From: Aquisphaera insulae
Lineage (GTDB): Bacteria; Planctomycetota; Planctomycetia; Isosphaerales; Isosphaeraceae
DNA length: 64,000 bases
Direction of reading: 5' to 3'
Assembly (NCBI RefSeq): GCF_011064615.1
Contig: NZ_JAALJH010000024.1
Coordinates: 1 to 64,000, forward strand
The notes under the pieces are model-generated. The model had not been told where the DNA came from, did not search any database, and saw only the letters and a program-made list of their open reading frames with translations. A program made the position numbers and the translations under genes. This document shows, in pieces, positions 1 through 14,715 of the stretch; the first letter of the stretch is position 1, and each line of letters begins with the position of its first letter.

Positions 1-131
1 GACCGCCGTCAATACAAACCGTGTCGTGCGCCCCCCCCAGCCCCGCAACCGTCGTTGTCCGGCCGCGCTCGCTTTGATAGCCTCGTTCCTGGCCCGCAAC
101 CCGACACGCCCGCACGAATCGGAACTCGCCC

Positions 132-1706
132 ATGCTCGTCCCCTCGATGATTCTGGCCTGCCTCCTGGGATTCCTCGACGACGGGCCCTCACCATCGGCC
201 GGGGGACGGGACCACGACTACTTCCACGAGAACGTGATGGGGACGTCGCTCGAGCTCCGGGTCCGGGCCGCGGATGAGCCCTCCGCCCGTCGCGCGGAGT
301 CGCGGGTCCTCGCCGAGATCGACCGACTCGCCCGGGTCTTCAGCTCCTACGACCCATCGAGCGAGATCCGACGCTGGCAGTCCGGGCCGCCCGGCCCCGC
401 ACACGTCTCGCATGAGTTGCTCGACCTGCTCGCCGCCTGCGACGGCTGGCGCGAACGGAGCGGCGGGGCCTTCGACGCCCGCGCGGAGGTCTTCACCCGG
501 ATCTGGGCCGGCGCCGAACGGCGGGGATCGCCCCCCTCGGCCCCCGAGCTCGCCGCCGCCCGGACGCTCCTGGATCGGCCCGCCTGGCGACTCGACATGA
601 CGGGGGCGACGGCCGAGCGGCTCGAGGATGTCCCAATCACGCTCAACGCCATCGCCAAGGGCTGGATCGTCGAGCGGGCCGCCGTGGCCGGGCTCGGGGA
701 GGGCGAAGGCGTCCGCGGCCTGGTCCTGAACGTCGGCGGGGACCTGCGGGCGATGGGCGACATCGAGGCGAACATCGGCATGGTCTCCCCCTGGAGGGAC
801 TCCGAAGGGGCGGAGCCGATGACGACGCTCGCCGTCCGGGATCGGGCCGTCGCCACCAGCGGGCAATCCCAGCGCGGGTTCCGGATCGGCGGCGCCTGGT
901 ATTCGCACATCATCGACCCCCGGACCGGGCTCCCCGCCCGCGAGGTCGTCGCGGCCACCGTCGTCGCGCCCCGGTCGGCGGACGCGGACGCACTCGCGAC
1001 CGCCTGCTGCGTCCTGACGCCGGAGGAGGGCCTCCGGCTCATCGCGTCCGTGGCGGGCGCGGAGGGCCTCGTCGTCGATCGCCGGGGGCGGGTCACCCGG
1101 AGCCCGGGCTTCTCACGCTTCGAGATCGCGATGGCCTCCCAGGAGCCGGCGAAGCCCGCGGCGAAACCGGAGGCCGGTTCCCAGGACGGGGCCGCGGAGA
1201 CATGGAACCGGGACCATGAGCTGGCCATCGACTTCGAGATCAACGCCCCGGAAGGGGAGGGCCGGCGCTACCGTCGGCCTTACGTCGCGATCTGGATCGA
1301 GGACGCCGACGGCAACGTCGTCCGCAACCTGACCCTCTGGGTCTCGCTCCGGGGCGCCGGCCCGTTCCAGTGGCTCCCCGACCTGAAGCGCTGGTATCGC
1401 GCCGACCAGGCCCGCAAGCAGGCGGAGAAGAAGGACCTGTTCCTCACCCTGGCCCGACCGACGCGGCCTCCCGGCAAGTACAAGGTCGCCTGGGACGGCA
1501 AGGACACCCAGGGCCGCCCCGCCCCCCCCGGCGAATACACGGTCAACATCGAGGCCGTCCGCGAGCACGGGACGTACCAGCATATCCAGAAGAAAATGAA
1601 GGTCGGTGGCGATGCCCCGATCCGCGAGGAGCTGAGGGGGGATACCGAGATCAAATCCGCGACCGTCGAATACCGTCGCAAGGATTCGCCGAAACCGGCG
1701 CGGTGA
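132..1706 (+). CDS. ApbE-type FAD:protein FMN transferase fused to a DUF2271 domain
   Basis: Predicted exported flavin transferase that attaches FMN from FAD to Thr/Ser of target proteins. Residues 1-15 look like a short hydrophobic export signal. The ApbE domain spans about 30-330: the LNVGGD segment lies near 200 and the conserved HIIDPRTG motif at 259-266, followed by the small-residue stretch DADALATACC. After a linker rich in Ala, Pro and Lys, residues about 358-500 form a second domain that fits DUF2271 (short beta strands, WIEDADGNVVRNL). DUF2271 is usually a separate protein encoded next to ApbE and PepSY genes, so the fusion fits that family setting. The PepSY membrane gene starts 11 bases downstream and probably shares the transcript. 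The ATG at 132 is chosen because the signal follows it directly. No flavinylation target motif was recognised in the fusion itself. Confidence 0.88.
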   Translation: MLVPSMILACLLGFLDDGPSPSAGGRDHDYFHENVMGTSLELRVRAADEPSARRAESRVLAEIDRLARVFSSYDPSSEIRRWQSGPPGPAHVSHELLDLLAACDGWRERSGGAFDARAEVFTRIWAGAERRGSPPSAPELAAARTLLDRPAWRLDMTGATAERLEDVPITLNAIAKGWIVERAAVAGLGEGEGVRGLVLNVGGDLRAMGDIEANIGMVSPWRDSEGAEPMTTLAVRDRAVATSGQSQRGFRIGGAWYSHIIDPRTGLPAREVVAATVVAPRSADADALATACCVLTPEEGLRLIASVAGAEGLVVDRRGRVTRSPGFSRFEIAMASQEPAKPAAKPEAGSQDGAAETWNRDHELAIDFEINAPEGEGRRYRRPYVAIWIEDADGNVVRNLTLWVSLRGAGPFQWLPDLKRWYRADQARKQAEKKDLFLTLARPTRPPGKYKVAWDGKDTQGRPAPPGEYTVNIEAVREHGTYQHIQKKMKVGGDAPIREELRGDTEIKSATVEYRRKDSPKPAR

Positions 1707-1717
1707 CATGAGGTGAG

Positions 1718-2389
1718 GTGACTGTGCCGATGGCCACGACCGACGCTCGCCCGTTCCGCCGCCGGCTGGCGATCCGCTTCGCCTGGCTCGCCCGATGGCT
1801 GCACGTCTACGCCTCGATGCTCGGCCTGGCGGTGACGCTCTTCTTCAGCGTCACGGGGATCACGCTCAATCACCCCGACTGGTTCTTCGGCGAGCAGGCG
1901 CGGACCGTCCAGGCGGAGGGGGCCATCAACTCGGATCTGCTCCACCTGAAACCTCCCGCCCCCGGCAACCAACCTTCGCCGGACCTCTCCGCGGAGGTTG
2001 CGAAGCTGGAGGTCGTCGAGGCGCTCCGGAAGGCCCACGGCATCCGCGGCGCGCTCGTCGACTTCAAGGTGGACGAGCAGGAATGCTCGGTCACGTTCAA
2101 GGGGCCGGGCTACTCGGCCGATGCCTTCATCGACCGGGAGTCGGGCAAGTACACGCTGACGGAGTCGATCCACGGCCTCGTCGCGGTGCTCAACGACCTG
2201 CACAAGGGCCGCGACACCGGCCCGGCCTGGTCGGCGGTGATCGACATCTCGGCGGCGGTCCTCGTGGTCATCTCGCTCACGGGCCTGATCCTCCTCTTCT
2301 ATCTTAAGCTCCGTCGCATCCCGGGCCTGATCGTGGCCCTCATCGGGACGATCGTCGTCCTGGCGTTCTATTTCTGGGGAGTGCCCTGA
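1718..2389 (+). CDS. PepSY-associated transmembrane protein
   Basis: Membrane protein of the PepSY_TM type, 223 aa. The first membrane segment is around residues 25-48 (LHVYASMLGLAVTLFFSVTG, then the typical ITLNHPDWF). A periplasmic PepSY-like region covers about 60-150. The C-terminus has two hydrophobic segments at about 165-190 and 200-222. Start is GTG at 1718, with an in-frame ATG at 1730 as alternative; GAGGTGA precedes both. It follows the ApbE-DUF2271 gene by 11 bases, and ApbE, DUF2271 and PepSY genes commonly sit together in predicted flavin-based transmembrane electron-transfer modules. That role is inferred from family and context only, since no haem or flavin ligand motif is certain here. 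Confidence 0.82.
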   Translation: MTVPMATTDARPFRRRLAIRFAWLARWLHVYASMLGLAVTLFFSVTGITLNHPDWFFGEQARTVQAEGAINSDLLHLKPPAPGNQPSPDLSAEVAKLEVVEALRKAHGIRGALVDFKVDEQECSVTFKGPGYSADAFIDRESGKYTLTESIHGLVAVLNDLHKGRDTGPAWSAVIDISAAVLVVISLTGLILLFYLKLRRIPGLIVALIGTIVVLAFYFWGVP

Positions 2390-2445
2390 CGACAGACGAA
2401 ATCCGGCCTGGGATGACGTCAGCCAGCCGGGACCGTCGCAGGTCT

Positions 2446-2500
2446 GGGTGGTTTCCCATGAACTCCCTGCGAGCTGATGGGTGGCTTCCCATGAACTCCC
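2446..2500. repeat. 22-base tandem direct repeat, two copies
   Basis: Two copies of GGGTGG(T/C)TTCCCATGAACTCCC lie at 2446-2467 and 2479-2500, so the period is 33 bases and they differ at one position. They sit just after the PepSY gene and before the palindromic repeats. They could be a residue of a longer repeat or a binding site; no function is evident. Confidence 0.8.
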
Positions 2501-2561
2501 ATGCCGAAGGGCGAGGTGAGTCGCAGGCGACGAGCGCCGAGATCATGCAGGATCTCTGTCC

Positions 2562-2675
2562 GGGTGGCTGTGGTGGAAGCGAAGCGACACCACGGGATCG
2601 CCTCGGCCGGCGCCGATGCAGGCGCGATCCGGGTAAGCCTTTGCGATCCCGTGGCATCGACTTCGTCAGCATCGT
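2562..2675. repeat. Palindromic dispersed repeat, family A, copy 1 (right end disrupted)
   Basis: The left arm begins GGGTGGCTGTGG at 2562-2573 and runs to the ACGGGATCG block near 2600. A spacer follows, then the inner right-arm block GCGATCCCGTGGCATCG at 2643-2659; the terminal CCACAGCCACCC is missing here. By eye the left arm matches the reverse complement of the right arm of the copy at 18178-18298 at all but one of about 39 positions. This shows it is a mobile or amplified repeat rather than a local hairpin. Confidence 0.85.
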
Positions 2676-2736
2676 CCCGAGACGGTGAGAAGTCGGCTCC
2701 CGAGGGTTGACAGCCGGCATAATTACGCAAGCATGG

Positions 2737-2900
2737 GTGACCACGATCGTCAGATCGTGGTTCGGACGGGCGAAGCCTCCAGCCTCGCACGTCAGTGCGA
2801 TCCGCGGGGCAGGCCGTCGCTCGTCCGAAGGCGGTCCGGCTTACGCCGGAGGCTGGTGGGCTGCGCCCCGTCCGAACCACCCGCTCACGCGGGTGGTTAC
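2737..2900. repeat. Inverted-repeat element with terminal hairpins, family B, complete copy
   Basis: The left end begins GTGACCAC and folds as CCACGATC-GTCA-GATCGTGG, followed by TTCGGACGGGCGAAGCC. The right end is the inverse: CCCCGTCCGAA, then ACCACCCGC-TCAC-GCGGGTGGT, ending GGTTAC. The two ends are thus inverted copies of each other, each carrying its own 8-9 base-pair hairpin. The inner half around 2800-2850 also matches the copy at 25111-25209. There is no open frame inside, so it would be a non-autonomous repeat, either REP-like or a miniature element. Confidence 0.85.
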
Positions 2901-2950
2901 CCGTTCAGAAAGCTCGCGCAGGACTGTCAATCCGTGGCTTCCGCATTTGG

Positions 2951-2983
2951 GATAGTGCCACTTCGTCTCTGCCACAGCCACCC
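2951..2983. repeat. Family A right-end fragment
   Basis: This stretch ends in CCACAGCCACCC, the right terminus of repeat family A, preceded by a degenerate arm (GTGCCACTTCGTCTCTG). It may be the missing right end of the copy that starts at 2562, separated from it by the family B element, or an independent partial copy. The sequence alone does not decide. Confidence 0.65.
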
Positions 2984-3210
2984 GATCGAGGGCTCGTGGG
3001 ACGAATGCGAACCGCCTCTCACTCCGGATTCACGGGGCGTGGGGTCGTCTTCGGCTCCGTCACAGCGACCCCGATGTTCGGTCGCGGCAGGTAGAGCCCG
3101 ATGTCCAGGTCCAGCATGCAGGGACTGCGAACCCGATTCGCCGCGCGGTGTCTGTTCCGCTCGGTGGGAGCACATCGGGCGCGCAAGGCCGGGGACGAGC
3201 GAACGGCGAT

Positions 3211-4638
3211 ATGGACGCCAGGCCGAAGTCGAACAAGCAGAAGCGGCTGGAGCTGAAGGAGAAGCACGAGCGGAGGGCCGCGCGGCAGGCGGCGGAGCGA
3301 GAGAGCCCGCGGGCGCAGGCCCTGGCGATCGCGGCCCGCGCCGACGGGGCGCTCCGCGGATCGCGACTGTTCCACCGCAACCTGCCGCGGTTCCTGGAGC
3401 GGATCGAGGCGGAGGCGACGCCGGGCACGCCGGCGGCGGCGGGCGTCCGGGGGATCGCGTCGCTCTATGCGACGGTGAACCGGGCCAGCCCGAACGCGTA
3501 CCCGCTCGCGCCGGACCGGGATGCCTTCCGTCGTCTCATCGAGGTCTGCTGGGAGCGGACGAGCCTGCTCACGGGACAGCACGCATACACCTTCGCCAAT
3601 GCGCTGATGGCACTCTCGGCACACGCGGACGCGTGGGTCCGGCAGCCGGGCCCGTGGGTCCCGAAGACGCACAACGCGGACCGGCAGTTTCACGCGCTTC
3701 TGCGGCATCTTCTGGCGAAATACGACGTCCCCGCGTTCCTGAACTCGGCCTGGACCGAGGGCCTCACGCCGGCCGGCGTGATCCATCAGCGATGGTTCAT
3801 CCGGATCGCCCAGGGGCGGAACCTGCGCGACGCCGAAGGCCTGCCGATCCCGCTCACGAAGAAGCAGGCGCACCTGTATCTCCAGGCGCCCGCCGACTTC
3901 GACGTGCTGCGGGCCTTCCGCTGGGCCCAGCTCCGCGAGCTCGGGGCCGACGAGCGGTTCATCCGCTCCGTCGCCGCGACTCGGGTCGGCGGGTCGTTCG
4001 ACCACGAGGACTTCTGGATCACCGTGCTCCGCTGGCTCGTCGATCAGCCGATGCTCGACCACGCACACCACGGGCCGATCGTCGACTACCTGTTCGACCG
4101 GCGGTTCGCGGCGAACGTCCCCAACCCGCTGGCGAGCCAGCCGGGGCAGCCGCTGCTGATCCCGGCGCAGCCGAACCTGTCGATGAAGGGCCGCGACGTC
4201 GACGGCCTGCTCCGGGCCGTCGCGGCCTGGCACCGCCGGCTCGGCGGCGGTGGCCACGGGCCGAACTTCGCGTGGGACCCCGTGGGCCTGCCGGAGCTCG
4301 TCCACGAGGAGGGGGAGGGGAAGTCGCGGAAGGTCTACCGGATCGTCCAGCTCACGAACGCGCACGCCCTCCAGGGCGAGGGCCGGGTCATGGGCCACTG
4401 CGTGGCGTCCTACGCCCAGTCCTGCCGCGCCGGGCGGTGCTCGATCTGGTCGCTCCGGATGATCGACGCGGAGGGCCTGGAAACCCGGCTCGTCACGCTG
4501 GAAGTCGCCAACGCCTCCCGCCAGGTCGTCCAGGCCCGGCGGAAGCTCAACGCCATGCCCGGCCCGAAGGAGCTGAATCTCCTCCATCGCTGGACGGCCG
4601 CGGGCGGGCCGTCGCTGTCGAAGTGGGCCGTGCGGTGA
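3211..4638 (+). CDS. PcfJ-domain protein
   Basis: Soluble protein of 475 aa with a C-terminal PcfJ-like domain. The signature is the segment MGHCVASYAQSC at about residues 392-403 with conserved Gly, His and Cys, followed by SIWSLR and a beta-rich TLEV stretch. The N-terminus is a basic, Lys/Arg/Glu-rich helix (KQKRLELKEKHERRAARQ). PcfJ was named from conjugative plasmid pCF10, and chromosomal homologues occur in many bacteria without a settled biochemical role. ATG at 3211 is preferred over an in-frame GTG at 3148 because the extra 21 residues are Gly/Ser/Arg-rich and look untranslated. It stands alone between two repeat-bearing spacers, which fits an accessory gene, but no other mobility genes adjoin it. 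Confidence 0.8.
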   Translation: MDARPKSNKQKRLELKEKHERRAARQAAERESPRAQALAIAARADGALRGSRLFHRNLPRFLERIEAEATPGTPAAAGVRGIASLYATVNRASPNAYPLAPDRDAFRRLIEVCWERTSLLTGQHAYTFANALMALSAHADAWVRQPGPWVPKTHNADRQFHALLRHLLAKYDVPAFLNSAWTEGLTPAGVIHQRWFIRIAQGRNLRDAEGLPIPLTKKQAHLYLQAPADFDVLRAFRWAQLRELGADERFIRSVAATRVGGSFDHEDFWITVLRWLVDQPMLDHAHHGPIVDYLFDRRFAANVPNPLASQPGQPLLIPAQPNLSMKGRDVDGLLRAVAAWHRRLGGGGHGPNFAWDPVGLPELVHEEGEGKSRKVYRIVQLTNAHALQGEGRVMGHCVASYAQSCRAGRCSIWSLRMIDAEGLETRLVTLEVANASRQVVQARRKLNAMPGPKELNLLHRWTAAGGPSLSKWAVR

Positions 4639-4680
4639 ACGCCGCCGCGGCTCGCGTGCCGGTACTCTGCCGACCAGGCT

Positions 4681-4764
4681 GACGGGCAGGCAGGGATGTC
4701 TGCCCCCCGGTCTCGTAGCCACGCAAGCGGACTGGATTCGGGGGACGGGCATTCTTGCCTGTCC
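4681..4764. repeat. Palindromic dispersed repeat, family C, copy 1
   Basis: The left arm GACGGGCAGGCAGGGATGTCTG and the right arm GGGGGACGGGCATTCTTGCC are imperfect inverted copies separated by about 35 bases. The same element occurs more cleanly at 16878-16959. Here it lies between the convergent ends of the PcfJ and VOC genes, a position where a strong hairpin could end transcription from both sides. Confidence 0.8.
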
Positions 4765-4797
4765 TGGGCTCAGCCCGTCAATCAGGCCCGTGGCAGG

Positions 4798-5217
4798 TCA
4801 CGATCGCTCCGCGCGATAGGCCCCGAACGACCAGGTGTAGCCTTCCAGGTCCTTCGCGACGTATTGCCGGGGGCTGTACTCGGTGGTGTGCGGCTCGGCC
4901 GTGATCTCGGCGCCGGCGGCGCGGGCCTTCGCGTGGTGGGCGTCCACGTCCTCGATCGCGAAATAGATACTGAACCAGGCCCCCGGGTCGGCCGGCGGCG
5001 TCGGGATGTTCCCGTCCGCATCCTTGTGGACCGAGCCGAGCATCACGCAGCAAGGTCCCAGCCAGAGCTCGGCATGCGCGAGCGTCCCGTCCGGGTTCTC
5101 GACCACCAACCCCTTCTCGAGCCCGAACGCCTCCTGCAGCCAGGCGATCGCCGCGACGGCATCCCGGTAACGAAGGGCCGGATAAATCACCGGGATGGCA
5201 GCTTGTGATGCGGACAT
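4798..5217 (-). CDS. VOC-family (glyoxalase/bleomycin-resistance fold) protein
   Basis: Small 139-aa protein of the vicinal oxygen chelate superfamily. Pairs of beta-alpha-beta-beta-beta units are visible: YPALRYRDAVAAIAWLQEAFG at the start, HAELWLGPCCVMLGS in the middle, YFAIEDVDAHHAKARAAGA in the second half, then DLEGYTWSFG near the end. These proteins bind a metal through His/Glu side chains, and members range from glyoxalase I to antibiotic-binding and dioxygenase enzymes; the substrate cannot be read from the sequence. ATG at 5217 is chosen because GAGG sits about eight bases upstream and the conserved fold starts right after it. An upstream extension to 5361 lacks family character. Confidence 0.85.
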   Translation of the reverse strand: MSASQAAIPVIYPALRYRDAVAAIAWLQEAFGLEKGLVVENPDGTLAHAELWLGPCCVMLGSVHKDADGNIPTPPADPGAWFSIYFAIEDVDAHHAKARAAGAEITAEPHTTEYSPRQYVAKDLEGYTWSFGAYRAERS

Positions 5218-5475
5218 GACGGGTACCTCATCCGGACGTGACGAAGACTGGACGCAGGATCGAACCAGGATGGCAATCGATATGAGCCGATTGTCGCTGA
5301 CGCGGAGCCGGCAGGGAAAGAGGAGGCCCCGCATGGACGATCCGGTCGGCAGAGACCGCAAGGAACCCGCATGCCCTCGCGGTCGCCCCGTAGCCGCCCT
5401 TCAGCCAACGCGAGAATCACGGAGGACATGCTCGAGGCCCTGAGCCGCCCTCGCGACCGCTTCGCCGGCCGGCCT

Positions 5476-8088
5476 TCATGACCCCGCGCCCTTCGCACGT
5501 GGCCCTCGGGAGGACCGCATCCAATCGGCTCGGCGGGCAAAATCCTCCTGGACCTCGGCACGCCAACGCCAGACGGTCTCTCCTCCGGCCGGGGCATCGA
5601 ACCAATGGTTCCGGGAGGAATCCGGGCGGACGAAGCGTCCGCCCCAGCCCGCCTGGTCGGGGCGTTCGGGGTCATTCCGCCCGTGCACACCACCGGCCAG
5701 GTGCAGGAACGAGGGCGAGTCTCCCTCGATGACACCCTCGGACCGGAGGTTCGCCCCGCTCTTCGGATAAATGGCCCCGAGCGGCCCGTGCCCGCTGCGG
5801 ATGTGCTCGTCCAACCACGCCAGGTCCGCGAGCTTCCGGTCGGAACCGGGCATGTCCCAGAACATGCCCATGTAGTTCCGCTCCGAGAGGATGACGAACA
5901 GGCCCGGGAACGAGTCGAGCAGCCATTGCGTCGAGCCGTCCTGCCTGGCGATCGCGTAGACCCGCAGCTTGTCCAGGAAGCGGGCGAGCTCGGCGGGGGA
6001 ACGTGTCGCTCGAACCTTCCAGATGGCCTGGGCCAGGTCGCACGAGCCGCCCCAGACGCAGAACCAGACCGGCCGCGGGTCGGGCCGGTCCACCAGCCTG
6101 ATGATGGCCCCCGAGGCTTCGCTATCCTTGCCCTCGCCCACGAGCTCCCCGACCGGCTTGCCGTAGGTGCCCGAGCGGCCCTCCCAGGTCACCGACCGAA
6201 GCATATCGGCGGTCGGATATCGGGGGTCGTGCCGCCTCAGGTCGTCGTCTACCTGGTCGTAGAGGTCGAGGATGTCCAGCACGTTCCGCCTCCTCGCCAC
6301 GTTGGCCAGGGTCGCCGACGATGCCACGAGGCCCTCGATCTCGAGGTCGTTCCCGTAGAGCAGGAAGCGGACCATCGATTGCACGTCGTCCGGGTCGCTC
6401 CGCTTCTCGGGCGGGCCGTGCCCGGCCCCCACCGGGATGACGTCGAGCGGCGGGAAGTCCGACAGCACGACCACGCGGGGCCTCGCGGCGGGAGGCGGCG
6501 ACCCGAGGCCACCGTCGGCCGCTTCGGGGCGAAGCGCCTCGCCCGCCCCGCGGGGCGTGAAGCGGTACGCGAGGTCGGGCCTCGGCGACGAGACGACGAA
6601 CTCCCCGGCCTTCGCCGTGCCCACCGGCGTGACGGTCATCTCCCAGGGGTCGACGGCATCGACCTTGTACGGCCGGTCGCCCTCCAGGGTCAGCGTCAGT
6701 TTCCCGGGGGCCGTGCCGTAGAGGAGGTAATACTCGCCGGGCTTTGCGAGCAGGAAGCGGCCCTTGCCGTCGCCCATCGGCCGGAGCTCGTGGAAGGCTG
6801 GGGCCTTCGCCATGAAGTCCTTCAGCCATTGGATCCGCTTCGGGCTCTGGCCGTGCAGCTCACCCCCCTTGGACCACCACAGGATGTCCTTCGGGTGCTC
6901 GTAGGTCTCGCCGTGCCCGACGTAGCAGCCGCTCAGCGTGCCGAGCCAGAACCGCTGCACCATCTCGCGAGCGGTGAGGTTCCCCCAGGAGTCTTTGAGG
7001 TCGCCCTCGTAGCGGCACTCGTCGTAGATGACCGGTTTGCGATATCGGTCGCGGAACGACCGCCCCCCGTTCATGTCGGAGGTCTGGAGGCTCGCGTGCG
7101 TCACCCAGGGTTTCGTGTGGTCGTAGACCTTGACGCCGTTGTGGATGCTCCGTAGCCGTCCGTGCGGGTCCTCGTTCTGAAGGATCGAGAAGAACCGGTC
7201 CCAATCCTCCCACTGCTTGTTGCCGCCGTGGCTCCCGGGACGCTTGTCGGTCATGAAGTCGTATTCATTGGCGAGCGACCACCAGACGTTGCGGTACGCC
7301 GAGAGCCGGGCGATGCAGTACCGCAGATAGCGGTCGTCTTCGGCGTCGCTCATCTCCGAGAAGCCCCATCGGTCGTAGGGGTGCCAGAGGATGATGTCCG
7401 CCTCGATGCCCAGCGATTGCAGGTCGAGGATGCGACGCTCGAACCGCCGCCAGAACTCGGGGTCCGGCCTGCTGAAATCGAACTTGCCGTCGGCCCGCCT
7501 GAGGAAGGCGAAGAGCTCCGGTTCGTTCTTGTTGGCGATGTAGTAGCTCTTGGGGAAGACGCAGAAGCGGAGCTTGTTGAACGGCGAGGCGGCGAGCGTC
7601 TTGAGCGTCCGCTCCTGGAGCTCGCGGGGTTGGTGCACCCAGGCGTAGCAGGTCGTGCCGAACGGGTGATAGGGCGAGCCGTCGGCATACCGGAAGTGGA
7701 ACGTCTCGAAGACCCGGACCGGCCCGTGATTGCTCGCCGCGGGCGGCCCGGCCGTGAACGAGCCGGACTTGCCGTCCAGCTCGGGCCGGTTGCTCCGCGT
7801 CGCGTAGGTCCACGTGCCCGACGACGGGGGCGAGAAGCGGACCCGATAGACGCCGTCGCCGTCGTAGAAGCCCCGCACCGTCACGCGCTCGCCCTCATGA
7901 CGGAGCGTGCACGAGAGGTCCACGTCGAGGAAGGGATTGCCCTCGCGAGGGCCGTCGAGCGACGCCTCCCACACCCCCCACCGCTCGACGTCGGCGGCCC
8001 GCCCGACGCCCGAGAAGACGGCGAGCGTGGCCAGGCTCAGGCACCATGCGACCGCCCGGAAGGAGGCCCGGATATCCCTGGATTTCAT
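5476..8088 (-). CDS. Secreted DUF5060/apiosidase-like glycosidase fused to a DUF1593 domain
   Basis: 870-aa exported protein. Residues 1-31 are a signal peptide ending near GRAAD. A DUF5060 beta domain follows at about 33-105 (WGVWEASLDGP, GFYDGDGVYRVRFSP). Residues 120-430 form a TIM barrel of the DUF4038/apiosidase-like type; N274-E275 in SLANEYDF and E357 in IYDECRYEG sit where clan GH-A enzymes carry their acid/base and nucleophile. A short beta domain follows, then at about 540-860 a DUF1593 domain with DPDDVQSMVRFLLYGND, related to nucleoside hydrolases and also found in cellulose-binding Sde182-type proteins. The usual DUF1593 opening appears altered by an insertion before DPDD. DUF5060/DUF4038 and DUF1593 are normally separate proteins, so the fusion may join two glycan-cleaving steps. 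An AraC regulator is transcribed divergently. GAGG precedes the ATG. Confidence 0.85.
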   Translation of the reverse strand: MKSRDIRASFRAVAWCLSLATLAVFSGVGRAADVERWGVWEASLDGPREGNPFLDVDLSCTLRHEGERVTVRGFYDGDGVYRVRFSPPSSGTWTYATRSNRPELDGKSGSFTAGPPAASNHGPVRVFETFHFRYADGSPYHPFGTTCYAWVHQPRELQERTLKTLAASPFNKLRFCVFPKSYYIANKNEPELFAFLRRADGKFDFSRPDPEFWRRFERRILDLQSLGIEADIILWHPYDRWGFSEMSDAEDDRYLRYCIARLSAYRNVWWSLANEYDFMTDKRPGSHGGNKQWEDWDRFFSILQNEDPHGRLRSIHNGVKVYDHTKPWVTHASLQTSDMNGGRSFRDRYRKPVIYDECRYEGDLKDSWGNLTAREMVQRFWLGTLSGCYVGHGETYEHPKDILWWSKGGELHGQSPKRIQWLKDFMAKAPAFHELRPMGDGKGRFLLAKPGEYYLLYGTAPGKLTLTLEGDRPYKVDAVDPWEMTVTPVGTAKAGEFVVSSPRPDLAYRFTPRGAGEALRPEAADGGLGSPPPAARPRVVVLSDFPPLDVIPVGAGHGPPEKRSDPDDVQSMVRFLLYGNDLEIEGLVASSATLANVARRRNVLDILDLYDQVDDDLRRHDPRYPTADMLRSVTWEGRSGTYGKPVGELVGEGKDSEASGAIIRLVDRPDPRPVWFCVWGGSCDLAQAIWKVRATRSPAELARFLDKLRVYAIARQDGSTQWLLDSFPGLFVILSERNYMGMFWDMPGSDRKLADLAWLDEHIRSGHGPLGAIYPKSGANLRSEGVIEGDSPSFLHLAGGVHGRNDPERPDQAGWGGRFVRPDSSRNHWFDAPAGGETVWRWRAEVQEDFARRADWMRSSRGPRAKGAGS

Positions 8089-8115
8089 CGCGATGACCCT
8101 CGGTTGACCGTCTCG

Positions 8116-8127
8116 ATCCGTACGGAT
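8116..8127. promoter_or_regulatory. Perfect 12-base palindrome in the divergent hydrolase/AraC promoter region
   Basis: ATCCGTACGGAT is a perfect palindrome in the 85-base gap between the DUF5060/DUF1593 gene and the AraC gene. A smaller CGGTTGACCG palindrome lies at 8101-8110. Such symmetry in a divergent control region is a candidate operator. AraC proteins usually bind direct repeats, so the factor that binds is not certain. Confidence 0.35.
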
Positions 8128-8173
8128 TCTCCCATGAAGAAACCCGCGTTACTCCCTTGAATCGGGAGGTTTC

Positions 8174-9049
8174 TTGCGGAATCCTAAGGTCATGGACCGT
8201 TTCGACCCGGCCCGCCCCGAGTTCTCGCCGTACGGGTTCAGTTGCGTCCGCTGGACGCCGACGACGATGCCGCGCGGCGACCGCCACAACGAAATCGAGC
8301 TCAACCTCCTGGGGGAAGGGAGGCTCACGTACCTCATGGGAGGGAGGAAGGTCGTCGTCCCGGCTGGGCGGTTGGCCGCCTTCTGGGCCGGTATCTCGCA
8401 TCAGATCGTCGGGTTCGAACGGCTCTCCGAGTATTTCGTGCTGACCGTCCCCCTGGCGTGGTTCCTCCAATGGCGGCTGCCCGACGGTTTCACGCAGGCG
8501 GTCGTGCACGGAGGGACCGTCATCGAGCCGGACGAGGGCCGCTTCGCGACGGACCGAATATGGTTCGAGGCATGGTGCGAGGACCTGCGGACCGGCTCGG
8601 AGGAGCGCCGCCGAGTCTGCCTGCTGGAGGTCGAGGCCCGCCTGCGACGGCTCGCGATGAGCGTTGCTTCAGACGAGACGCGGCGGCCGCGGCGGAGCTC
8701 GCCGGCCGTCCTCGACGGCCGCCACTTGAGCCGGGCGGAACGGATGGCGGCCTTCATCGCCCAGAACTACACGCAGCCTCTGACTGCCGAGGCCATCGGC
8801 CAGCACGTAAGCCTCCATCCGAACTACGCGATGGCCCTCTTCCAGCGGACTTTCGGCACCACGCTGATCGCTCACATCACCCAACACCGGCTCTCGCACG
8901 CTCAGCGGTTGCTCGTCACCACGAAGGATTCCGTCGCGAGCATCGCGTTCGGCTCGGGCTTCGGATCGCTCAGCCGTTTCAACGAGGCGTTCCGCCAGTC
9001 TTTCAGGTGCACGCCTCGGGAGTACCGCAGGTTGCATCAGCCTCTCTGA
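8174..9049 (+). CDS. AraC-family transcriptional regulator
   Basis: 291-aa regulator with an N-terminal cupin-like sensing domain (residues about 15-110: RHNEIELNLLGEGRLTYL, LAAFWAGISHQI) and a C-terminal pair of helix-turn-helix motifs at about 195-290. The second carries the family signature SVASIAFGSGFGSLSRFNEAFRQ followed by CTPREYRR. It is divergent from the large DUF5060/DUF1593 hydrolase and is the obvious candidate to control it in response to a sugar; that is inferred from position. Start is uncertain: TTG at 8174 has GGGAGG four bases upstream, while ATG at 8192 has a weaker site. AAGAAACC at 8137-8144 and GGTTTCTT at 8168-8175 could pair and cover the first ribosome-binding site. 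Confidence 0.88.
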   Translation: MRNPKVMDRFDPARPEFSPYGFSCVRWTPTTMPRGDRHNEIELNLLGEGRLTYLMGGRKVVVPAGRLAAFWAGISHQIVGFERLSEYFVLTVPLAWFLQWRLPDGFTQAVVHGGTVIEPDEGRFATDRIWFEAWCEDLRTGSEERRRVCLLEVEARLRRLAMSVASDETRRPRRSSPAVLDGRHLSRAERMAAFIAQNYTQPLTAEAIGQHVSLHPNYAMALFQRTFGTTLIAHITQHRLSHAQRLLVTTKDSVASIAFGSGFGSLSRFNEAFRQSFRCTPREYRRLHQPL

Positions 9050-9590
9050 CGGTTCGAGGGGAAATCAATGGTCACGCGCTCAAGATGGGTAAAACCAGGG
9101 AAACCGGCGGACACACGGCCTGAATGGCACGTCGACATCGCGAGCCGGCCGTTGACAGGCCCAGGCCGCCGACAGCCCCAACTGGATTGACCCGCTTTCC
9201 TCTCTGCACTACCCAGGATACCCGCTTTGAGTTCCTGGCCTTTGATGCCCTGGCGTTTGATGCTCCTAGCCTTTGATGCCCCCAACGATGCTGGCGTCGG
9301 CGGAGGCGTAGCGAGTGGACCCAGATCGGCTTAACCTGATCGACGGCCTCCGCTGTTTGACCGGCCTCGAGAGCGGTGGAGACTCGCCGACCTTGGTCGT
9401 CAATCCATCTCGCTGTGGCCGCTACGAGCCTCGCGCGAGGAAGCGCCGACCGAATCAGTAACTTGGCTTAACCAAGCCCCGGATGGATTACCACAAGGAG
9501 ATACTCTTGCAGTATTATTGCGGCTTAACTCCAGGGTATTCGCGATGGCCCCTTTCATTGCCCCGCGAGCAGATACGCCACGTCAGACGC
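9050..9590. other. Intergenic stretch, nothing coding seen
   Basis: About 540 bases between the AraC gene and the protease-like gene. The base composition is visibly less GC-rich than around it, with stretches such as the one near 9500 (CAGTATTATTGCGGC). A short tandem repeat lies at 9237-9286. No recognised gene, RNA or terminator was found. It is the left part of a gene-poor island that continues to 11822. Confidence 0.6.
9237..9286. repeat. Short tandem repeat, about three 15-base units
   Basis: Read on the minus strand, a unit close to GCATCAAAGGCCAGG recurs three times in a row with one or two changes, with a decayed fourth unit (ACTCAAAGCGGG) next to it. The unit length is a multiple of three, but no convincing gene runs through it. 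It may be a small minisatellite. Confidence 0.7.
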
Positions 9591-10463
9591 TCAGTCCGCC
9601 ATCTCCTCCTTCTCCGCGTCCTGCTCCAGCATCCTTTGCATGCCTGTGATCAGGATGTCGCGCACATCCGCAAGCGGCGTGGCGCACACGATCCGCTCCG
9701 GCGGATACCAGCCGCTTTGCACTCCGATGAACCAGTAACGGCCGATGCCGTTCTCATCGAGCTTCAGGCCAAGGATAGGGCCGCCACTCATCCCCTTGAT
9801 GCTCTTCACTCGTTCCTGGGTATCGACCACGCCGTAAAACATGGGATCGCTCTGCTCTTGGTAGCACGCCGGTCTTGCGTGCAGCCGTTCCACGGGGATC
9901 AGTATCGGCTGTGCCGACCAGATGCCCTGCCCTTGCGGGCGCACCAGCTCCCCAGGCAAGCCCAGCATGTAGTAATGATCGAACGTCTCCGGCACCTTCA
10001 CCCAATTTGGTGGGCCGACCGGTTCAAGCCTGTTACCCAGCATCAAATCCGCATCATGAGCTCTCAGGAATATCACCCCGAAATCCATGCCCAGAGCGGT
10101 CCCCCGGTCATCAGTATGGTAGAGCCACGCCTTCGGATGACCGCCCAGATAATCGAACGGCATCGGCAGTTCCGACACGGCGTTGGCGTGAAGCATGTCG
10201 AGGAAGCGAAATCTCACGTCGTCGAAGCATTCCAGCCGTCCTAGGAGTTGCTCTTCAATCTCCTGCATGCAGTGCCCCGCCGTAATCCACATCGTTGCCT
10301 GCCGAGCCGTTCCAGGCAGGTTCACCTGGAGCAGAAATCCCGAATAATGGCTGCGCGCCTGCTCATGCGGTTTGGTTTGATGCTTCACGGTATAGGACGC
10401 TTCGAGCACGGCCAAGTGTCGGGCGAACCACAGCTCTGCGTCAACGCGATCAGCCATTGGCAC
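9591..10463 (-). CDS. Trypsin-like serine protease domain protein
   Basis: 290-aa protein with the catalytic triad order of the chymotrypsin fold. His64 lies in WITAGHC, Asp127 in GMDFGVIFL and Ser226 in KGMSGGPILG, with spacing that fits a minimal trypsin-like domain. The Met before the nucleophile (GMSGG rather than GDSGG) argues against classical trypsin specificity. No signal peptide is visible, so it would be cytoplasmic. Start is ATG at 10463, with an in-frame ATG at 10457. GC content and codon use look lower than in the flanking genes, and it stands alone in a gene-poor region beside an IS66 relic, which suggests acquisition by transfer. Cytoplasmic trypsin-like domains of this kind are often parts of conflict or signalling systems, but no partner gene is adjacent. 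Confidence 0.78.
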   Translation of the reverse strand: MPMADRVDAELWFARHLAVLEASYTVKHQTKPHEQARSHYSGFLLQVNLPGTARQATMWITAGHCMQEIEEQLLGRLECFDDVRFRFLDMLHANAVSELPMPFDYLGGHPKAWLYHTDDRGTALGMDFGVIFLRAHDADLMLGNRLEPVGPPNWVKVPETFDHYYMLGLPGELVRPQGQGIWSAQPILIPVERLHARPACYQEQSDPMFYGVVDTQERVKSIKGMSGGPILGLKLDENGIGRYWFIGVQSGWYPPERIVCATPLADVRDILITGMQRMLEQDAEKEEMAD

Positions 10464-10727
10464 CTCTGGACGGAGTCAGGCATGATACTGGACGTCCATA
10501 CCCATCATATCCATGCGTTCCCTCAGTCGCCAGTCGAGCTCGCAAGCGGCCAACGCCTACAGAAAGGGGCGAGCCTTCCGGACCGCCCCGATCACCACTG
10601 GCACTCATCGACTTCCCCGGCCGTACCGCACCCGCTTTCTATCAGCCGCCATGGATGACCTGGCGGTTCAAACGTCCCGATATATCTGGACGTAGGTCGC
10701 TGCTTCCCCTTCGAGCAAGCGAGGAAT

Positions 10728-10803
10728 CAGTGGCCGCGGGAATCAGCGGGAATCCACGGGAATCAGCAGCGGGAATCAGTGGCCACGGGGATCAGTGGCC
10801 ACG
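10728..10803. repeat. Short interspersed direct repeats (GGGAATCAG / CAGTGGCCAC units)
   Basis: Within 75 bases the words GAATCAGTGGCC, GGGAATCAGCGGGAATC, GGGAATCAGCAGCGGGAATCAGTGGCCAC and GGGATCAGTGGCCAC follow one another, so a core GGGAATCAG is repeated at least four times and CAGTGGCC three times. It lies just before the IS66 relic. It may be replication slippage in decaying DNA. Confidence 0.7.
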
Positions 10804-10889
10804 CCCCCAAGTTGGAGAAGCTGGGGAGGCAGGAGAACACATCGACCCAGCGACATCTTAATTCCGAATATCGTAGTAGCGCCGCTCGG

Positions 10890-11225
10890 GCCGTCGAGAT
10901 CGAGCTCCCCGGCGGTGTCCGGCTCCGCCTCGAATCCCGGCCGGAGCCCGAATGGATCGGCCGGCTCGTCGTGGCGGTCGTCGGGCTCGTGGCTGGGGAG
11001 GCCGGCTGATGATCCTCCGTCCGCTGGCCAGCCGCGCGTTCCTCTGCACCTGGCCCGGCGACATGCACAAGGCTTCGAGGAACTCTCCCTCGTCCGGTCC
11101 GGCTTCGACCAGGACGTCCTCCGCGGCCACCTCGTCCTCGTCGTCAACCGCCGCGGCGAACACCTCAGGGCGCTCCACGTCCACCGGGACGAACTGGTGA
11201 TCTGGTCCCGCGGATCCGGGTCGAG
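10890..11225 (+). pseudogene. IS66-family relic: end of orfA and frameshifted orfB
   Basis: The frame ending at 11009 closes with AVEIELPGGVRLRLESRPEPEWIGRL, split here at the family core IELPGGVRLRL, which resembles the C-terminus of IS66 accessory protein OrfA. Its TGA overlaps an ATG at 11009 (TGATG), the usual OrfA/OrfB junction in this family. OrfB then starts MILRPLASRAFLCTWPGDMHK, matching the FLCT.P.DMRKGFDGL opening of TnpB, but is knocked out of frame near 11071. In the next frame it continues GFEELSLVRSGFDQ and GHLVLVVNRRGEHLRAL to about 11225. Loss of one G in AAGGGCTTC would explain the shift. The transposase gene and the terminal inverted repeats were not found. Confidence 0.72.
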
Positions 11226-11822
11226 CACGATCTGCACGAGGCCGAAACGACCGAGCGGTTACGCGGAGACGTGGGGTCTGGGATTTCGGATTTCGCCGAT
11301 TTCGGCGGAAACAATCTCTGGGAAAACTCGCCGGCGAGGGACAAAAAACGCGAAACATGGCGCACTCTCTGAATAGAGGCATCCTCTTGCGGTGAGCGTG
11401 CGCGCCGCCGGGATCTCGGTCGGATCGGCGACGATGATCGAGGTCCACGTGGGTGCGGGGCCTGAAGAATCCCGATTCCAGGGCGGCGGTTCCGGGCGAC
11501 GAAGGATGCGGAGATCGGGGGTCTGAATCCCGAAAAATGGCGGGCAAAGCCAAATCGAAAAGCGAGTCTAATGTGATGCAGAAAAAGGACTTATGCTAAT
11601 GGCGCGGAGGCCGGGAAAAGACGAACGAACCCAAATTCGCGGGCTGATCCGGGGCACCTCCGACGAGCTGATGGCGACACCCTGGAAGGGATCGGTCTGG
11701 ACCATCAACGGCCTCCGAAGCGGCCAGGGTCCAGAAGGGGTGAGGTGGCTTCTGTCGACATAGTGAGTCACGGCTCGGATCTTGCGTGATCTCTCTGCCG
11801 CATCCGTCATCCGGAGGATCGC

Positions 11823-12668
11823 GTGTCGTCAGAGAGCGCCCGCTCGGAGGAATCGAAGCTCCCCGCCTACGCGGCGACGATGGCCGCCTATCATCGCGCC
11901 TTCGCTCCCGAGCTGATCGCGATCCTGGAGGATCTTCCGATCCGCAAGGGGGACGTGGTGCTCGACTTCGCCTGCGGCGACGGCACGTACACGCGATGGC
12001 TCGCACGACTCGTCGGCAAGTCCGGCCAGGTGATCGCGCTGGACGTCTCGCCGGCCTTCCTGGAGGTGGCCCGGCGCAAGGTCGCGCGACGGCCGAAGCG
12101 GGCGAGGCGGGTCGGGTTCGTCCGGGGCGACGTCGATCACGTCCCGATCGGGGGCGGCTCGGTCGACATGGTTTGGTGCGCCCAGAGCCTCTATAGCCTG
12201 CCCGACCCGATCGAGGCGATCCGGCGGATGGCCGGAGTCGTCCGCCCGGGGGGGCATGTCGCGGTCTTCGAGAACGACGAGCTGCACCACGTCCTCCTCC
12301 CCTGGCCGGTGGAGATCGAGCTGGCGCTCCGCAAGTCGGAGCTCGAGGCGTTCGTCGCCGGGGCCGACGAGCCGCGGAAGTTCTACGTCGGCCGCCAACT
12401 CCTGCACGCCCTCCGCGCGGCCGGGCTCGTCGACGTCCGGGTCCGATGCGTCGCGTTCACGCGGCAAGTGCCCCTGGACCCGGCCGCACGCAAGTTCTTC
12501 GCGGGTTACCTGGAAGACCTCCGCGACCGCGCCGGGCCGCGGCTCGAGCCGAGCCTGCGGACGCTCGTCGATCGGCTCACCACGCCGGACTCCGGCCAGT
12601 TCCTCCTGGATAGCCCGGACCTGAGCGTGACCTGCGTGAACCACACCGCGATCGGCGTCAGGCCGTGA
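11823..12668 (+). CDS. Class I SAM-dependent methyltransferase
   Basis: 281-aa cytoplasmic methyltransferase of the UbiE/Methyltransf_11 type. Motif I is VLDFACGDGTYT at residues 46-57, the acidic end of strand 2 is IALDVSP, and the later motif near 115 reads SVDMVWCAQSLYSLPDP. The C-terminal third (VRCVAFTRQVPLD) probably shapes the acceptor pocket. The substrate cannot be predicted. GTG at 11823 is chosen because GGAGG lies just upstream. Its last 11 bases overlap the end of the convergent phosphoesterase gene, so the two transcripts are antisense at their tails. Confidence 0.88.
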   Translation: MSSESARSEESKLPAYAATMAAYHRAFAPELIAILEDLPIRKGDVVLDFACGDGTYTRWLARLVGKSGQVIALDVSPAFLEVARRKVARRPKRARRVGFVRGDVDHVPIGGGSVDMVWCAQSLYSLPDPIEAIRRMAGVVRPGGHVAVFENDELHHVLLPWPVEIELALRKSELEAFVAGADEPRKFYVGRQLLHALRAAGLVDVRVRCVAFTRQVPLDPAARKFFAGYLEDLRDRAGPRLEPSLRTLVDRLTTPDSGQFLLDSPDLSVTCVNHTAIGVRP

Positions 12669-13572
12669 ACGACGGCAAGTCCGAAGCAGTCGCGGTCAGA
12701 GAGTCCTCGATCATCGGCACGACCTTCCAGTCCGCGCCGGTCCAGGCGTGATGGGAGACCGCGACGCGATCGTCGTCCAGGAGGATCTCCAGGAAGCCGG
12801 GGAGGCGCAGGCCGGTCGGGTCGATCATGGTCGGCGAGCCGGAATTGAGGCAAAGCTGGTTGGGGATCTCCTCCGGGCGAATCGCCCAGGCGGCGTGAAC
12901 GTGCCCGCAGCAGTAGAGATGAGGGCCGATCGTTTTCAGCCAGTCGCGGACGGCCTGCTCGTTCTCCAGCCGCTTGAGCGCCAGCTCGACGCGGTAGAGC
13001 GGCGGGGCGGCGACCGGATAGTGACAGGCGACGATCAGCCGTCGCGGCAGATTGGCGGGATCGGCCGTCAGCGCGCGGGCGGCTGCGAGCTGTCCTTCCG
13101 GAAGATAGCCCCGCGGCGAGAAGTGCCAGTGCCAGCGGGTGGCATCCATGCCGAGGATCCCGGTCTCGTCGTCGAGGCGGCGGATCCAGGGGAACGTGGT
13201 CGAGGGCATGAACTCGCCGAAGGCCGCCTCGAACCGGCGGGTGAAGTACGATCGGCGCGTCGTCCGGTCGTGGTTCCCGGGGATCATCGTGACCCGCTCC
13301 CGATCGCCGAGGATCGGCGCCAGCAGGCGTCGGGCCTGCTGGAATTCGGAGGGCAGGGCGGTGGTCGTCAGATCCCCCGTGATCAGGATGTGGTCGGGGT
13401 CGAGCGATCGCACGCGGTCCACCACGGCGTCGAGTCGATCCATGGGGAACCGCCGGGCCCGGCCCATGAGGAGTTCCATGACCCCGAGGATCCGGAGGCC
13501 GAACAGCCTGCGGGCGTTCCAGGTGTATCGCCAGACGTGGATGTCGGAGAGGTGGATCAGCCGCAAGGCCAT
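12658..13572 (-). CDS. Metallophosphoesterase (calcineurin-like)
   Basis: 304-aa dinuclear-metal phosphoesterase. All family motifs are present: DIH at 10-12, GD at 66-67 (ITGDLTTT), GNHD at 99-102, a His in ACHYP, and GHVH near 223-226. No signal or membrane segment is visible. Substrates in this family range from cyclic nucleotides to phospholipid intermediates. The lipid kinase gene ends 19 bases upstream in the same direction, so the pair is probably one operon. That could hint at a phospholipid-related substrate, but the genomic pairing is the only evidence. Confidence 0.87.
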   Translation of the reverse strand: MALRLIHLSDIHVWRYTWNARRLFGLRILGVMELLMGRARRFPMDRLDAVVDRVRSLDPDHILITGDLTTTALPSEFQQARRLLAPILGDRERVTMIPGNHDRTTRRSYFTRRFEAAFGEFMPSTTFPWIRRLDDETGILGMDATRWHWHFSPRGYLPEGQLAAARALTADPANLPRRLIVACHYPVAAPPLYRVELALKRLENEQAVRDWLKTIGPHLYCCGHVHAAWAIRPEEIPNQLCLNSGSPTMIDPTGLRLPGFLEILLDDDRVAVSHHAWTGADWKVVPMIEDSLTATASDLPSFTA

Positions 13573-13591
13573 CGTCGGGTCTCTCCTGGCA

Positions 13592-14524
13592 TCAGCGAGC
13601 GGGGTGGGGGACGATCACGCGGACAGCCTGAGGGACGACCCGGACCTCGATGGGCGTCTCGCCGATGACCTCGCCGTCCCCCTGCACGGGGAGGGGCCGC
13701 TCGGACCGGATGGCCACCTCGCGACCGGCCGACAGGTAGGCGATGTCCGGATCCTGCCGGTGCCGGCCCCGGATCACGTTCCAGGCCACCCGGAGCGGGC
13801 TCATCAGGTTGCCGGCGCGGAGGATGCAGACGTCGATCCGCCCGTCGTCGACTGCGATGTTCGGGCCCCACCTCAGCCCGGAGCTGCCGAGCATCCCGCA
13901 GTTGGCCAGCAGCACCTGGAGCGCCCTGGCCTTCGACGTCTTGCCGTCGGCGGAGATCGTGAACCGATGCGGCTGGAATCGCACGAGCTTCGTGACGGCC
14001 GTCCAGAGATAGGCCAGCACGCCCAGCCGCTTCTTGGCCTCGGTGTTCGTGTCGCGGATCATGAGCGCGTCGAGGCCGACGCCGATCTGGGTGAAATAAT
14101 GCTTGCCGCCGTACCCCATGGCATCGATCGCCGCGACGTCGTGCTCGCCGTTCACCAGGGCACACGCCTCGTCCATCGCGAGGGGGATTCCCAGCTCATG
14201 GGCCAGGACGTTGGCGGTCCCCAGCGGGATGATGCCGAGCCCGGCCCGGCTTCCCACCAGCCCGTTCGCCACCGCCGAGACCGTACCGTCCCCGCCGGCC
14301 GCCACGATCGTGTCGAAGCCTTCGGCCACGGCGCGGCGGACTCCCTCGACGATGTCCTCTCCCTCGCCGGGCTGCCAGATCCGGTGCTCCTTGTCCTCCT
14401 CGCCCCAGTACGCGAGCATCGCCCGGCGCACGGCCTCCGGCGAGGCTTGACCGGACTTCACGTTCATCACCACGAACATGCGCGACGTTTCGACTCGCGA
14501 CGTCCTCGTCATCATCCGTTCCAT
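13592..14524 (-). CDS. Diacylglycerol kinase-family lipid kinase
   Basis: 310-aa kinase of the DAGK/YegS/BmrU family, expected to phosphorylate diacylglycerol or a related lipid with ATP. The nucleotide-binding motif GGDGT is at 77-81, followed by the conserved GIIPLGTANVLAHELGIP. The C-terminal beta domain includes RIDVCILRAGNL and QGDGEVIGETP, typical of the family. The upstream extension to 14725 is rejected because it is Arg/Pro-rich and overlaps the next gene; ATG at 14524 follows a purine-rich GGGGGAA. It leads the phosphoesterase gene by 19 bases. The facing DUF1080 gene starts about 190 bases away, so this gap should hold two divergent promoters. Confidence 0.9.
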   Translation of the reverse strand: MERMMTRTSRVETSRMFVVMNVKSGQASPEAVRRAMLAYWGEEDKEHRIWQPGEGEDIVEGVRRAVAEGFDTIVAAGGDGTVSAVANGLVGSRAGLGIIPLGTANVLAHELGIPLAMDEACALVNGEHDVAAIDAMGYGGKHYFTQIGVGLDALMIRDTNTEAKKRLGVLAYLWTAVTKLVRFQPHRFTISADGKTSKARALQVLLANCGMLGSSGLRWGPNIAVDDGRIDVCILRAGNLMSPLRVAWNVIRGRHRQDPDIAYLSAGREVAIRSERPLPVQGDGEVIGETPIEVRVVPQAVRVIVPHPAR

Positions 14525-14715
14525 CGGCGATGTTCCCCCGCCACCGTCCCCTGGATGTACGGGGGTCTCCTGTGCAAGTCCGGGGCCAACGCGGGTGAAC
14601 TTTCTTGCTGGAAACCGAGGTCGCGTGCCTCTACCATGTGCGATCATCCCAGGCCGGTGACGCGCCTTGCCGTGGCGAGGGGCTGTCCCCCTGACCGAAC
14701 CCGGAGGACTTGCAC

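What the first reader, a model, noticed from the sequence alone, without database searches (positions are those of the whole stretch)
9591..10463. Cytoplasmic trypsin-like protease in a lower-GC, gene-poor island
The full His64/Asp127/Ser226 triad is visible without a signal peptide, and GMSGG replaces GDSGG. It sits between non-coding DNA and a decayed IS66 element, with composition unlike its surroundings. Orphan trypsin-like domains in bacteria are frequently effectors or sensors in defence systems, so a distant or lost partner is possible.
Basis: partly seen in the sequence, partly recalled or inferred. Interest (0 to 1): 0.5.

Follow-up and report, generated by a model that had tools for sequence, protein, structure and literature searches.

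The report
Lone mobile trypsin-like defence protease
A planctomycete carries a lone, recently arrived gene for a trypsin-like protease whose rare relatives are scattered across bacteria, phages and plasmids and in several cases sit directly beside known antiviral systems, so it is probably a mobile part of bacterial immunity.

Summary
The reported ORF is real: 290 aa, intact, minus strand, probably starting at ATG 10457. Its His64/Asp127/Ser226 triad is invariant in all 32 aligned homologues, and AlphaFold gives a trypsin-type fold (pLDDT 89; Z up to 17.2). It has the lowest GC and codon-adaptation score of 32 window genes and lies in a 2.8-kb stretch absent from both matching places of a congener. 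Homologues share 18-30% identity, are single-domain and rare (0-5% of sampled genomes, own genome or search centre left out). In 4 of 43 mapped neighbourhoods a homologue directly adjoins a tool-identified defence or conflict gene: QatABCD (4-bp overlap), Hachiman HamAB (12-bp gap), Druantia DruA (divergent) and a TPR-GreAB-C-PIN protein; in a fifth an HNH gene lies between. Three others are phage cargo beside portal and terminase genes. Most copies, including this one, have no recognised partner. Best reading: a free-standing protease module repeatedly taken up by antiviral systems, likely cutting a pro-effector or host protein during infection. Closest known: gated nuclease-protease pairs of Hachiman, AVAST and Lamassu; here the protease is never fused and no such nuclease was found nearby. 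Defence is inferred from neighbourhood; nothing was assayed.

The parts
9591..10463 (-). Stand-alone trypsin-like (chymotrypsin-fold) protease gene, 290 aa from GTG 10463; probable start ATG 10457 after AGAGG 10467-10463
   Evidence: ORF; invariant triad; fold
10272..10274 (-). Codon of catalytic His64 (TAGHC motif)
10083..10085 (-). Codon of catalytic Asp127 (GMDF motif)
9786..9788 (-). Codon of catalytic Ser226 in GMSGGPI
9043..11857 (.). Stretch with no counterpart in either of the two matching 19.9-kb stretches of congener G002; GC 0.60-0.64; holds the protease and possible IS66 remains
5233..11857 (.). Larger segment that interrupts collinearity with G002: window 115-5232 and 11858-14533 lie together there, 5498-9042 lies elsewhere
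11083..11211 (+). Possible decayed IS66 TnpB remnant (weak)
   Evidence: E 0.012, under the curated cut-off
10723..10803 (.). Imperfect short tandem repeat (16-bp unit, 5 copies)
8174..9049 (+). Left neighbour: AraC-type regulator, 84% identical in G002 but located elsewhere there
11823..12668 (+). Right neighbour: class I methyltransferase, 69% identical in G002

Best explanation
The gene encodes a soluble, single-domain chymotrypsin-fold serine protease of an unnamed family (signature TAGH ... G-x-D-F/Y ... GMSGGPI ... QSxW). The family spreads by horizontal transfer and serves as an accessory or effector module of antiviral defence: sometimes as the last gene of a known defence operon, sometimes as phage cargo, most often alone. 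Inferred mechanism: the protease is held latent until infection, when it is released by a partner's sensing step or directly by a phage component, and it then cuts a limited set of protein targets (a pro-effector such as a nuclease, or a host protein), stopping phage growth by arrest or death of the cell. Shown here: predicted protease fold, invariant triad, patchy distribution, island, adjacency to defence genes. Inferred: transfer, activity, trigger, substrate, protection. Met in place of Asp before the catalytic Ser means that the zymogen salt bridge of chymotrypsin (recalled knowledge) cannot be its switch. The window copy is probably a recently acquired orphan; its dependence on a partner elsewhere is unknown.
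For: Triad and oxyanion Gly invariant in 32 of 32 rows. Trypsin fold. Homologue directly after complete QatABCD, start overlapping the qatD stop by 4 bp; directly after HamA-HamB, 12-bp gap; divergent from DruA, with DruD two genes on (the gene between them had no PADLOC match); directly downstream of a TPR/PIN-TPR-GreABC protein (L008) and, with an HNH gene between, of another (L014); two genes from an HNH-NACHT protein (L031). Phage cargo on the opposite strand between portal and terminase genes in 3 loci, two of them near-identical (L051, L052), one directly after an XRE-like gene (by eye) with a 4-bp overlap. Near genes (146, from 19 genomes) hit 184 PADLOC families against 41 for 143 control genes; by locus 7 of 19 against 1 of 18, p 0.042. 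Rare: matches outside the own or centre genome in 5 of 98, 2 of 293, 5 of 348, 0 of 346, 2 of 44 and 0 of 344 genomes. Published precedent for trypsin-like proteases recurrently acquired by defence systems (PMC12799240, parts 1-3 of 6 read).
Against: In most of the 43 mapped neighbourhoods no recognised defence gene adjoins (not every neighbour was scanned with a library); several copies sit among housekeeping-looking genes (L015, L028, L032, L038, L070, L071; by eye). The strict locus count, 4 of 19 against 1 of 18, is not significant (p 0.34); the count of 7 was made after seeing the data, includes exonuclease and restriction genes placed by eye, and the control count leaves out generic families (mad, RtcR). 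If 4 of 143 control genes are taken as hits, 5 adjoining genes of 70 is only borderline (p 0.049; 1.6e-4 if 1 of 143). Qat, Hachiman and Druantia are defined without this gene (recalled), so adjacency may mean only shared islands. No partner was found in the window. Two relatives have lost the catalytic His. No experiment exists.
Confidence: 0.5

Rival explanations
1. A self-sufficient single-gene abortive-infection protease: it needs no partner, is triggered by a phage component and cuts an essential host protein. Its place beside complete systems only reflects shared islands. It would work like Lit of E. coli (recalled), which is a different, zinc-dependent enzyme.
For: Most mapped copies, the window's included, show no constant partner; one gene per genome in the 19 genomes looked at, one of them in two pieces; phage cargo position and an XRE-like gene (by eye) directly upstream in one phage; the sister proteins L043 and L044 have different upstream genes.
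Against: The 4-bp overlap with qatD and the 12-bp gap to hamB suggest shared transcription with those systems; no direct test.
Confidence: 0.25
2. A phage or plasmid counter-defence or superinfection-exclusion protease: it degrades host defence proteins or blocks competing elements, and copies in bacteria are prophage or plasmid remains.
For: Three copies within phage head-packaging modules and a fourth IMG/VR contig with a terminase gene; four plasmid-collection records, one of them a frameshifted copy on a 2.6-Mb replicon; possible IS remains at the window copy.
Against: No match in 50,697 phage records with the four family members tried; last-gene position in defence operons would be odd for an anti-defence gene.
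Confidence: 0.1
3. An ordinary cytoplasmic protease of unrelated function (for example protein turnover) that spreads horizontally and lies in variable islands by chance.
For: Many housekeeping-looking neighbourhoods; strict locus excess not significant.
Against: Direct contiguity with several unrelated defence systems in a sample of 43; extreme rarity is unlike a turnover enzyme.
Confidence: 0.15

Closest known systems
Gated nuclease-protease pairs of Hachiman (HamM/HamA), AVAST (Avs1), Lamassu (LmuA) and DRT (PMC12799240)
   Same: Trypsin-like serine protease recurrently joined to unrelated antiviral systems, Hachiman among them; horizontally mobile
   Different: There the protease is fused to a core defence enzyme and paired with an MBL-fold pro-nuclease; here it is a free single-domain protein in all 35 tree rows (at most 329 aa as used), and the only MBL motif in the 40 scanned stretches belongs to a gene that by eye is of the sulfide-oxidation type
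LmuA trypsin-type profile (PADLOC PDLC03855)
   Same: 21 of 32 family members match it at E up to 1, best 1e-9
   Different: The same profile matches two other trypsin-type proteins of the own genome better than this protease, which that search did not report, and rings in 8 of 14 control genomes, so it is not specific
Trypsin_2 (Pfam PF13365) and Deg/HtrA proteases
   Same: Fold and triad; Deg9 is the top Foldseek hit
   Different: No PDZ domain in the 8 members scanned and no leader seen by eye; GMSGG in place of the HtrA type GNSGG (recalled)
Trypsin-like peptidases of prokaryotic conflict systems (VMAP ternary, NucA-linked, iSTAND; PMC7159879, passages seen)
   Same: Trypsin-like peptidases as modules of conflict systems, occasionally stand-alone
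   Different: No vWA, MoxR, NucA or Trypco neighbour was recognised here, but not all neighbours were scanned

Membership tests
Chymotrypsin-fold (PA clan, S1-like) serine proteases | His-Asp-Ser triad in that order with GxSGG around Ser | tested here: met
   H64, D127, G224, S226, G227 invariant in 32 of 32; G228 in 30 of 32, the window included
Chymotrypsin-fold (PA clan, S1-like) serine proteases | Trypsin-type fold | tested here: met
   AlphaFold pLDDT 89, pTM 0.87; VIA Z 17.2 over 212 residues, rmsd 3.4, for the top chain
Chymotrypsin-fold (PA clan, S1-like) serine proteases | Proteolytic activity | not testable with these tools
   no experiment
Gated nuclease-protease pair (HamM-HamA, Avs1, Lmu) | Protease domain fused to a core defence enzyme | tested here: not met
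   window 290 aa; the 35 tree rows are stand-alone ORFs; longest open frame of any full-length match 377 aa, from an upstream start where the record annotates 279 aa
Gated nuclease-protease pair (HamM-HamA, Avs1, Lmu) | MBL-fold pro-nuclease gene, typically just upstream | tested here: not met
   motif scan [ST]HxH/YxDH in ORFs of 100 aa or more of 40 stretches (39 loci and the first 20.5 kb of the window): one hit, L030, by eye a sulfide-oxidation type gene
Gated nuclease-protease pair (HamM-HamA, Avs1, Lmu) | Linkage to Hachiman, AVAST, Lamassu or DRT | tested here: inconclusive
   one relative next to HamAB; none recognised for the window copy
LmuA-type trypsin domain | Specific sequence relationship to LmuA | tested here: inconclusive
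   21 of 32 members match, but the window protein only at E 0.068, and the profile rings in 8 of 14 control genomes
HtrA/Deg proteases | Secretion signal and PDZ domain | tested here: not met
   no PDZ in the Pfam scans of the window protein and 7 relatives; no leader by eye (no signal prediction was run)
Lit-type abortive-infection protease | Zinc-protease HExxH motif (recalled) | tested here: not met
   sequence shows a Ser triad and no HExxH

The most novel reading that the evidence does not exclude
A free-standing trypsin-like protease family is a general plug-in of bacterial immunity: acquired separately beside Qat, Hachiman, Druantia and TPR-GreAB-C-PIN loci and by temperate phages, it adds a proteolytic switch acting on system-specific targets, without the fusion and without the MBL pro-nuclease of the published pairs. 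The orphan planctomycete copy would then act in trans on other systems of its genome.
Probability: 0.25. Interest if true: 0.75.

Novelty: new variant of a known kind. Interest (0 to 1): 0.5.

Why it matters
Proteolytic activation of a gated nuclease in bacterial immunity has been described for trypsin-like proteases fused to core enzymes and for linked caspases (PMC12799240). A mobile stand-alone protease beside several mechanistically unrelated systems would mean that proteolysis is added to immune systems more freely than thought. The Qat-protease and Hachiman-protease operons found here give compact, directly testable units.

Tried and rejected
Single-protein Pfam, NCBIfam, PADLOC and PDB searches gave nothing usable: the RHS Pfam match (E 0.022) and the LmuA match (E 0.068) of the window protein alone are not significant. 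The exfoliative-toxin PDB matches of the profile (E 0.006-0.011) were taken as generic trypsin-fold similarity. Phage records gave no match with four members as query. Two further viral-contig scans gave nothing new. The MBL gene upstream of the L030 homologue was considered as a gated nuclease and set aside because its neighbours look like a sulfide-oxidation operon (by eye). A LmuA-specific kinship was considered and set aside: the profile matches two other trypsin-type proteins of the own genome and rings in 8 of 14 control genomes, and that search did not report this protease. Promoter and terminator scan: two promoter-like sites, both on the plus strand, none for this gene; one terminator-like site, fewer than the shuffles' mean of 1.8. 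No exact words of 11 bases are shared by the two ends of the 5.2-11.9 kb segment, nor of 12 bases by the two ends of the 9.0-11.9 kb stretch, so no target duplication was found. Literature searches for 'TPR-GreAB-C-PIN' (0 papers) and for trypsin-like defence proteases, LmuA, QatABCD and defence islands listed no paper that I recognised as reporting this family; beyond the two papers opened, only listings were seen, and the library lacks most subscription papers.

Rows dropped before counts: the fragments L011 and L016 (taken as one gene over two contigs), L024, L040, L042 and L046, the weak L023 and L072, and the frameshifted plasmid copy L073 were left out of A3 and of the tree; L069-L071 were added to the tree only. 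The 43 mapped neighbourhoods do include the fragments, two loci of one genome (L022/L024, and L035/L040) and near-identical phages (L051/L052), so they are not 43 independent cases; L073 was not mapped. The near set covers 19 of the 24 genome-contig loci; the control 18 genomes, because the 19th control contig was 311 bases long. The PADLOC tables for both sets give counts by family, the first 25 only, so the numbers of matching genes are not exact. Genes in unannotated loci come from my own simple gene caller.

Full report
Observation. The reported ORF 9591-10463 on the minus strand is intact and 290 aa long from GTG; a ribosome-binding-like AGAGG suggests ATG 10457 as the true start (read). 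It is right: in 32 aligned sequences, the others at 18-29% identity to the window protein, H64, D127 and S226 are invariant, with A62, G168, P170, G224, G227 and, near the N-terminus, H16. Trypsin_2 is found at E up to 1 in 5 of 8 members scanned, best 5.8e-6. AlphaFold gives pLDDT 89 and pTM 0.87, with Deg9 and clotting-type proteases as best matches (Foldseek E 4.8e-7; VIA Z 17.2 over 212 residues).

Active site. Position 225 before the catalytic Ser is Met in 30 and Val in 2 of 32 rows; the position six before Ser, which in trypsin sets Arg/Lys preference (recalled), is variable. So trypsin-like specificity and chymotrypsin-like zymogen control are not expected; this is inference.

Island. 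The protease has the lowest GC (0.595; mean of the other 31 genes 0.693) and the lowest codon-adaptation score among 32 window genes. Congener G002 holds the left neighbour (AraC, 84%) at 4.00 Mb and the right neighbour (methyltransferase, 69%) at 6.13 Mb. Window 115-5232 and 11858-14533 are collinear in one G002 stretch, 5498-9042 in another, and 9043-11857 in neither; the protease is absent from the whole of G002. The decayed IS66 is only weakly supported: a sub-threshold match, of a kind that also rings in 8 of 14 control genomes.

Distribution. The gene is single-copy in its genome. Matches outside the own or centre genome: 5 of 98 relatives, 2 of 44 in the family with none in the two congeners, 2 of 293 in the phylum, 5 of 348 and 0 of 346 in two proteobacterial orders, 0 of 344 in the phylum of a Syntrophaceae genome. 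One of the five was known before and one is weak and partial (L072). Relatives come from Planctomycetota, Pseudomonadota, Chloroflexota, Myxococcota and Thermodesulfobacteriota, four IMG/VR contigs and four records of the plasmid collection. The phylum of the window is inferred from titles of related records. In the tree of 35 rows the planctomycete and the viral labels need 3 changes each and are no more clustered than shuffled labels (151 and 174 of 500 shuffles as low); many deep branches are poorly supported, so transfer rests mainly on patchiness, the island and the phage and plasmid copies.

Neighbourhoods. 43 neighbourhoods other than the window's were mapped. In 4 a tool-identified defence or conflict gene directly adjoins: QatA-B-C-D then protease with a 4-bp overlap (L033; QatA 4e-253, QatC 2e-186, QatD 2e-111); HamA (4e-98) and HamB (E 0) then protease with a 12-bp gap (L043); DruA (1e-179) divergent, with DruD (1e-109) two genes on and an unmatched gene between (L037); and a TPR protein with PIN-TPR-GreABC (L008). 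In a fifth an HNH gene stands between the protease and a TPR/GT4-conflict/PIN-TPR-GreABC protein (L014). Close by but not adjoining, or only weakly identified: an HNH-NACHT protein (L031), a SIR2-like gene (L046), a TIR-like gene below cut-off (L049), and a type I restriction system (L026, genes assigned by eye, families). Two loci (L029, L042) adjoin a DEDDh-type exonuclease; PADLOC matches two near-set members to DEDDh and two to PDC-S48, but their assignment to these genes is by eye. In L050, L051 and L052 the protease lies on the opposite strand between portal and terminase genes, in L050 directly after an XRE-like gene (by eye); the L052 terminase is known only by its similarity to that of L051.

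Control. Genes within four of the protease in 19 genomes (146 genes) hit 184 PADLOC families at E up to 1e-10; 143 genes from stretches of 18 of these genomes chosen without regard to content hit 41. Multi-gene systems inflate this. By locus, 7 of 19 (L026, L029, L031, L033, L037, L042, L043) against 1 of 18 gives p 0.042, but the 7 include by-eye assignments and the control count leaves out generic families (mad, RtcR); counting only complete or restriction systems, 4 of 19 against 1 of 18, p 0.34. A crude count of 5 defence genes among 70 flanking genes gives p 1.6e-4 or 0.049, depending on whether 1 or 4 of 143 control genes are taken as hits. So the excess is suggestive; contiguity with several unrelated systems carries more weight.

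Literature. Tuck et al. 2025 (PMC12799240; parts 1-3 of 6 read) describe trypsin-like proteases recurrently acquired by Hachiman, AVAST, Lamassu and DRT, fused to a core enzyme and activating an MBL-fold pro-nuclease; Qat and Druantia are not named in its main text. The family here differs in being free-standing and in lacking such a nuclease nearby. Kaur et al. 2020 (PMC7159879, passages seen; first author recalled) describe trypsin-like peptidases in conflict systems.

Verdict. A real, probably mobile, catalytically intact-looking cytoplasmic protease; a defence role is likely but inferred; the partner of the window copy, if any, is unknown.

Noticed in passing
L070:7974-8816 and L071:7794-8822: Two related genes in the order of the Diaphorobacter genome, downstream of what by eye are ribonucleotide reductase genes, have Arg in place of the catalytic His and a changed oxyanion Gly: probably pseudo-enzymes kept in place.
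   Followed up: partly
L029:6912-7787 and L042:8665-9549: DEDDh-type exonuclease genes (by eye and by clustering) adjoin the protease in two different phyla, in opposite order; a possible second kind of nuclease-protease pair.
   Followed up: partly
L013:2267-3211: A gene with a weak proteasome-subunit match (under the Pfam cut-off) directly follows the protease homologue in a genome of the same family.
   Followed up: no
L008:4342-5800 and L043:1882-3178: The same two-gene pair with a RES-type toxin gene lies upstream of two different defence loci (TPR-PIN and Hachiman), each ending in the protease.
   Followed up: partly
L024:178-1199: A second, stop-interrupted copy of the protease in G236, beside an antitoxin-like gene (by eye).
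   Followed up: no
window 9225-9279 and 10723-10803: Short degenerate tandem repeats flank the protease gene on both sides.
   Followed up: no
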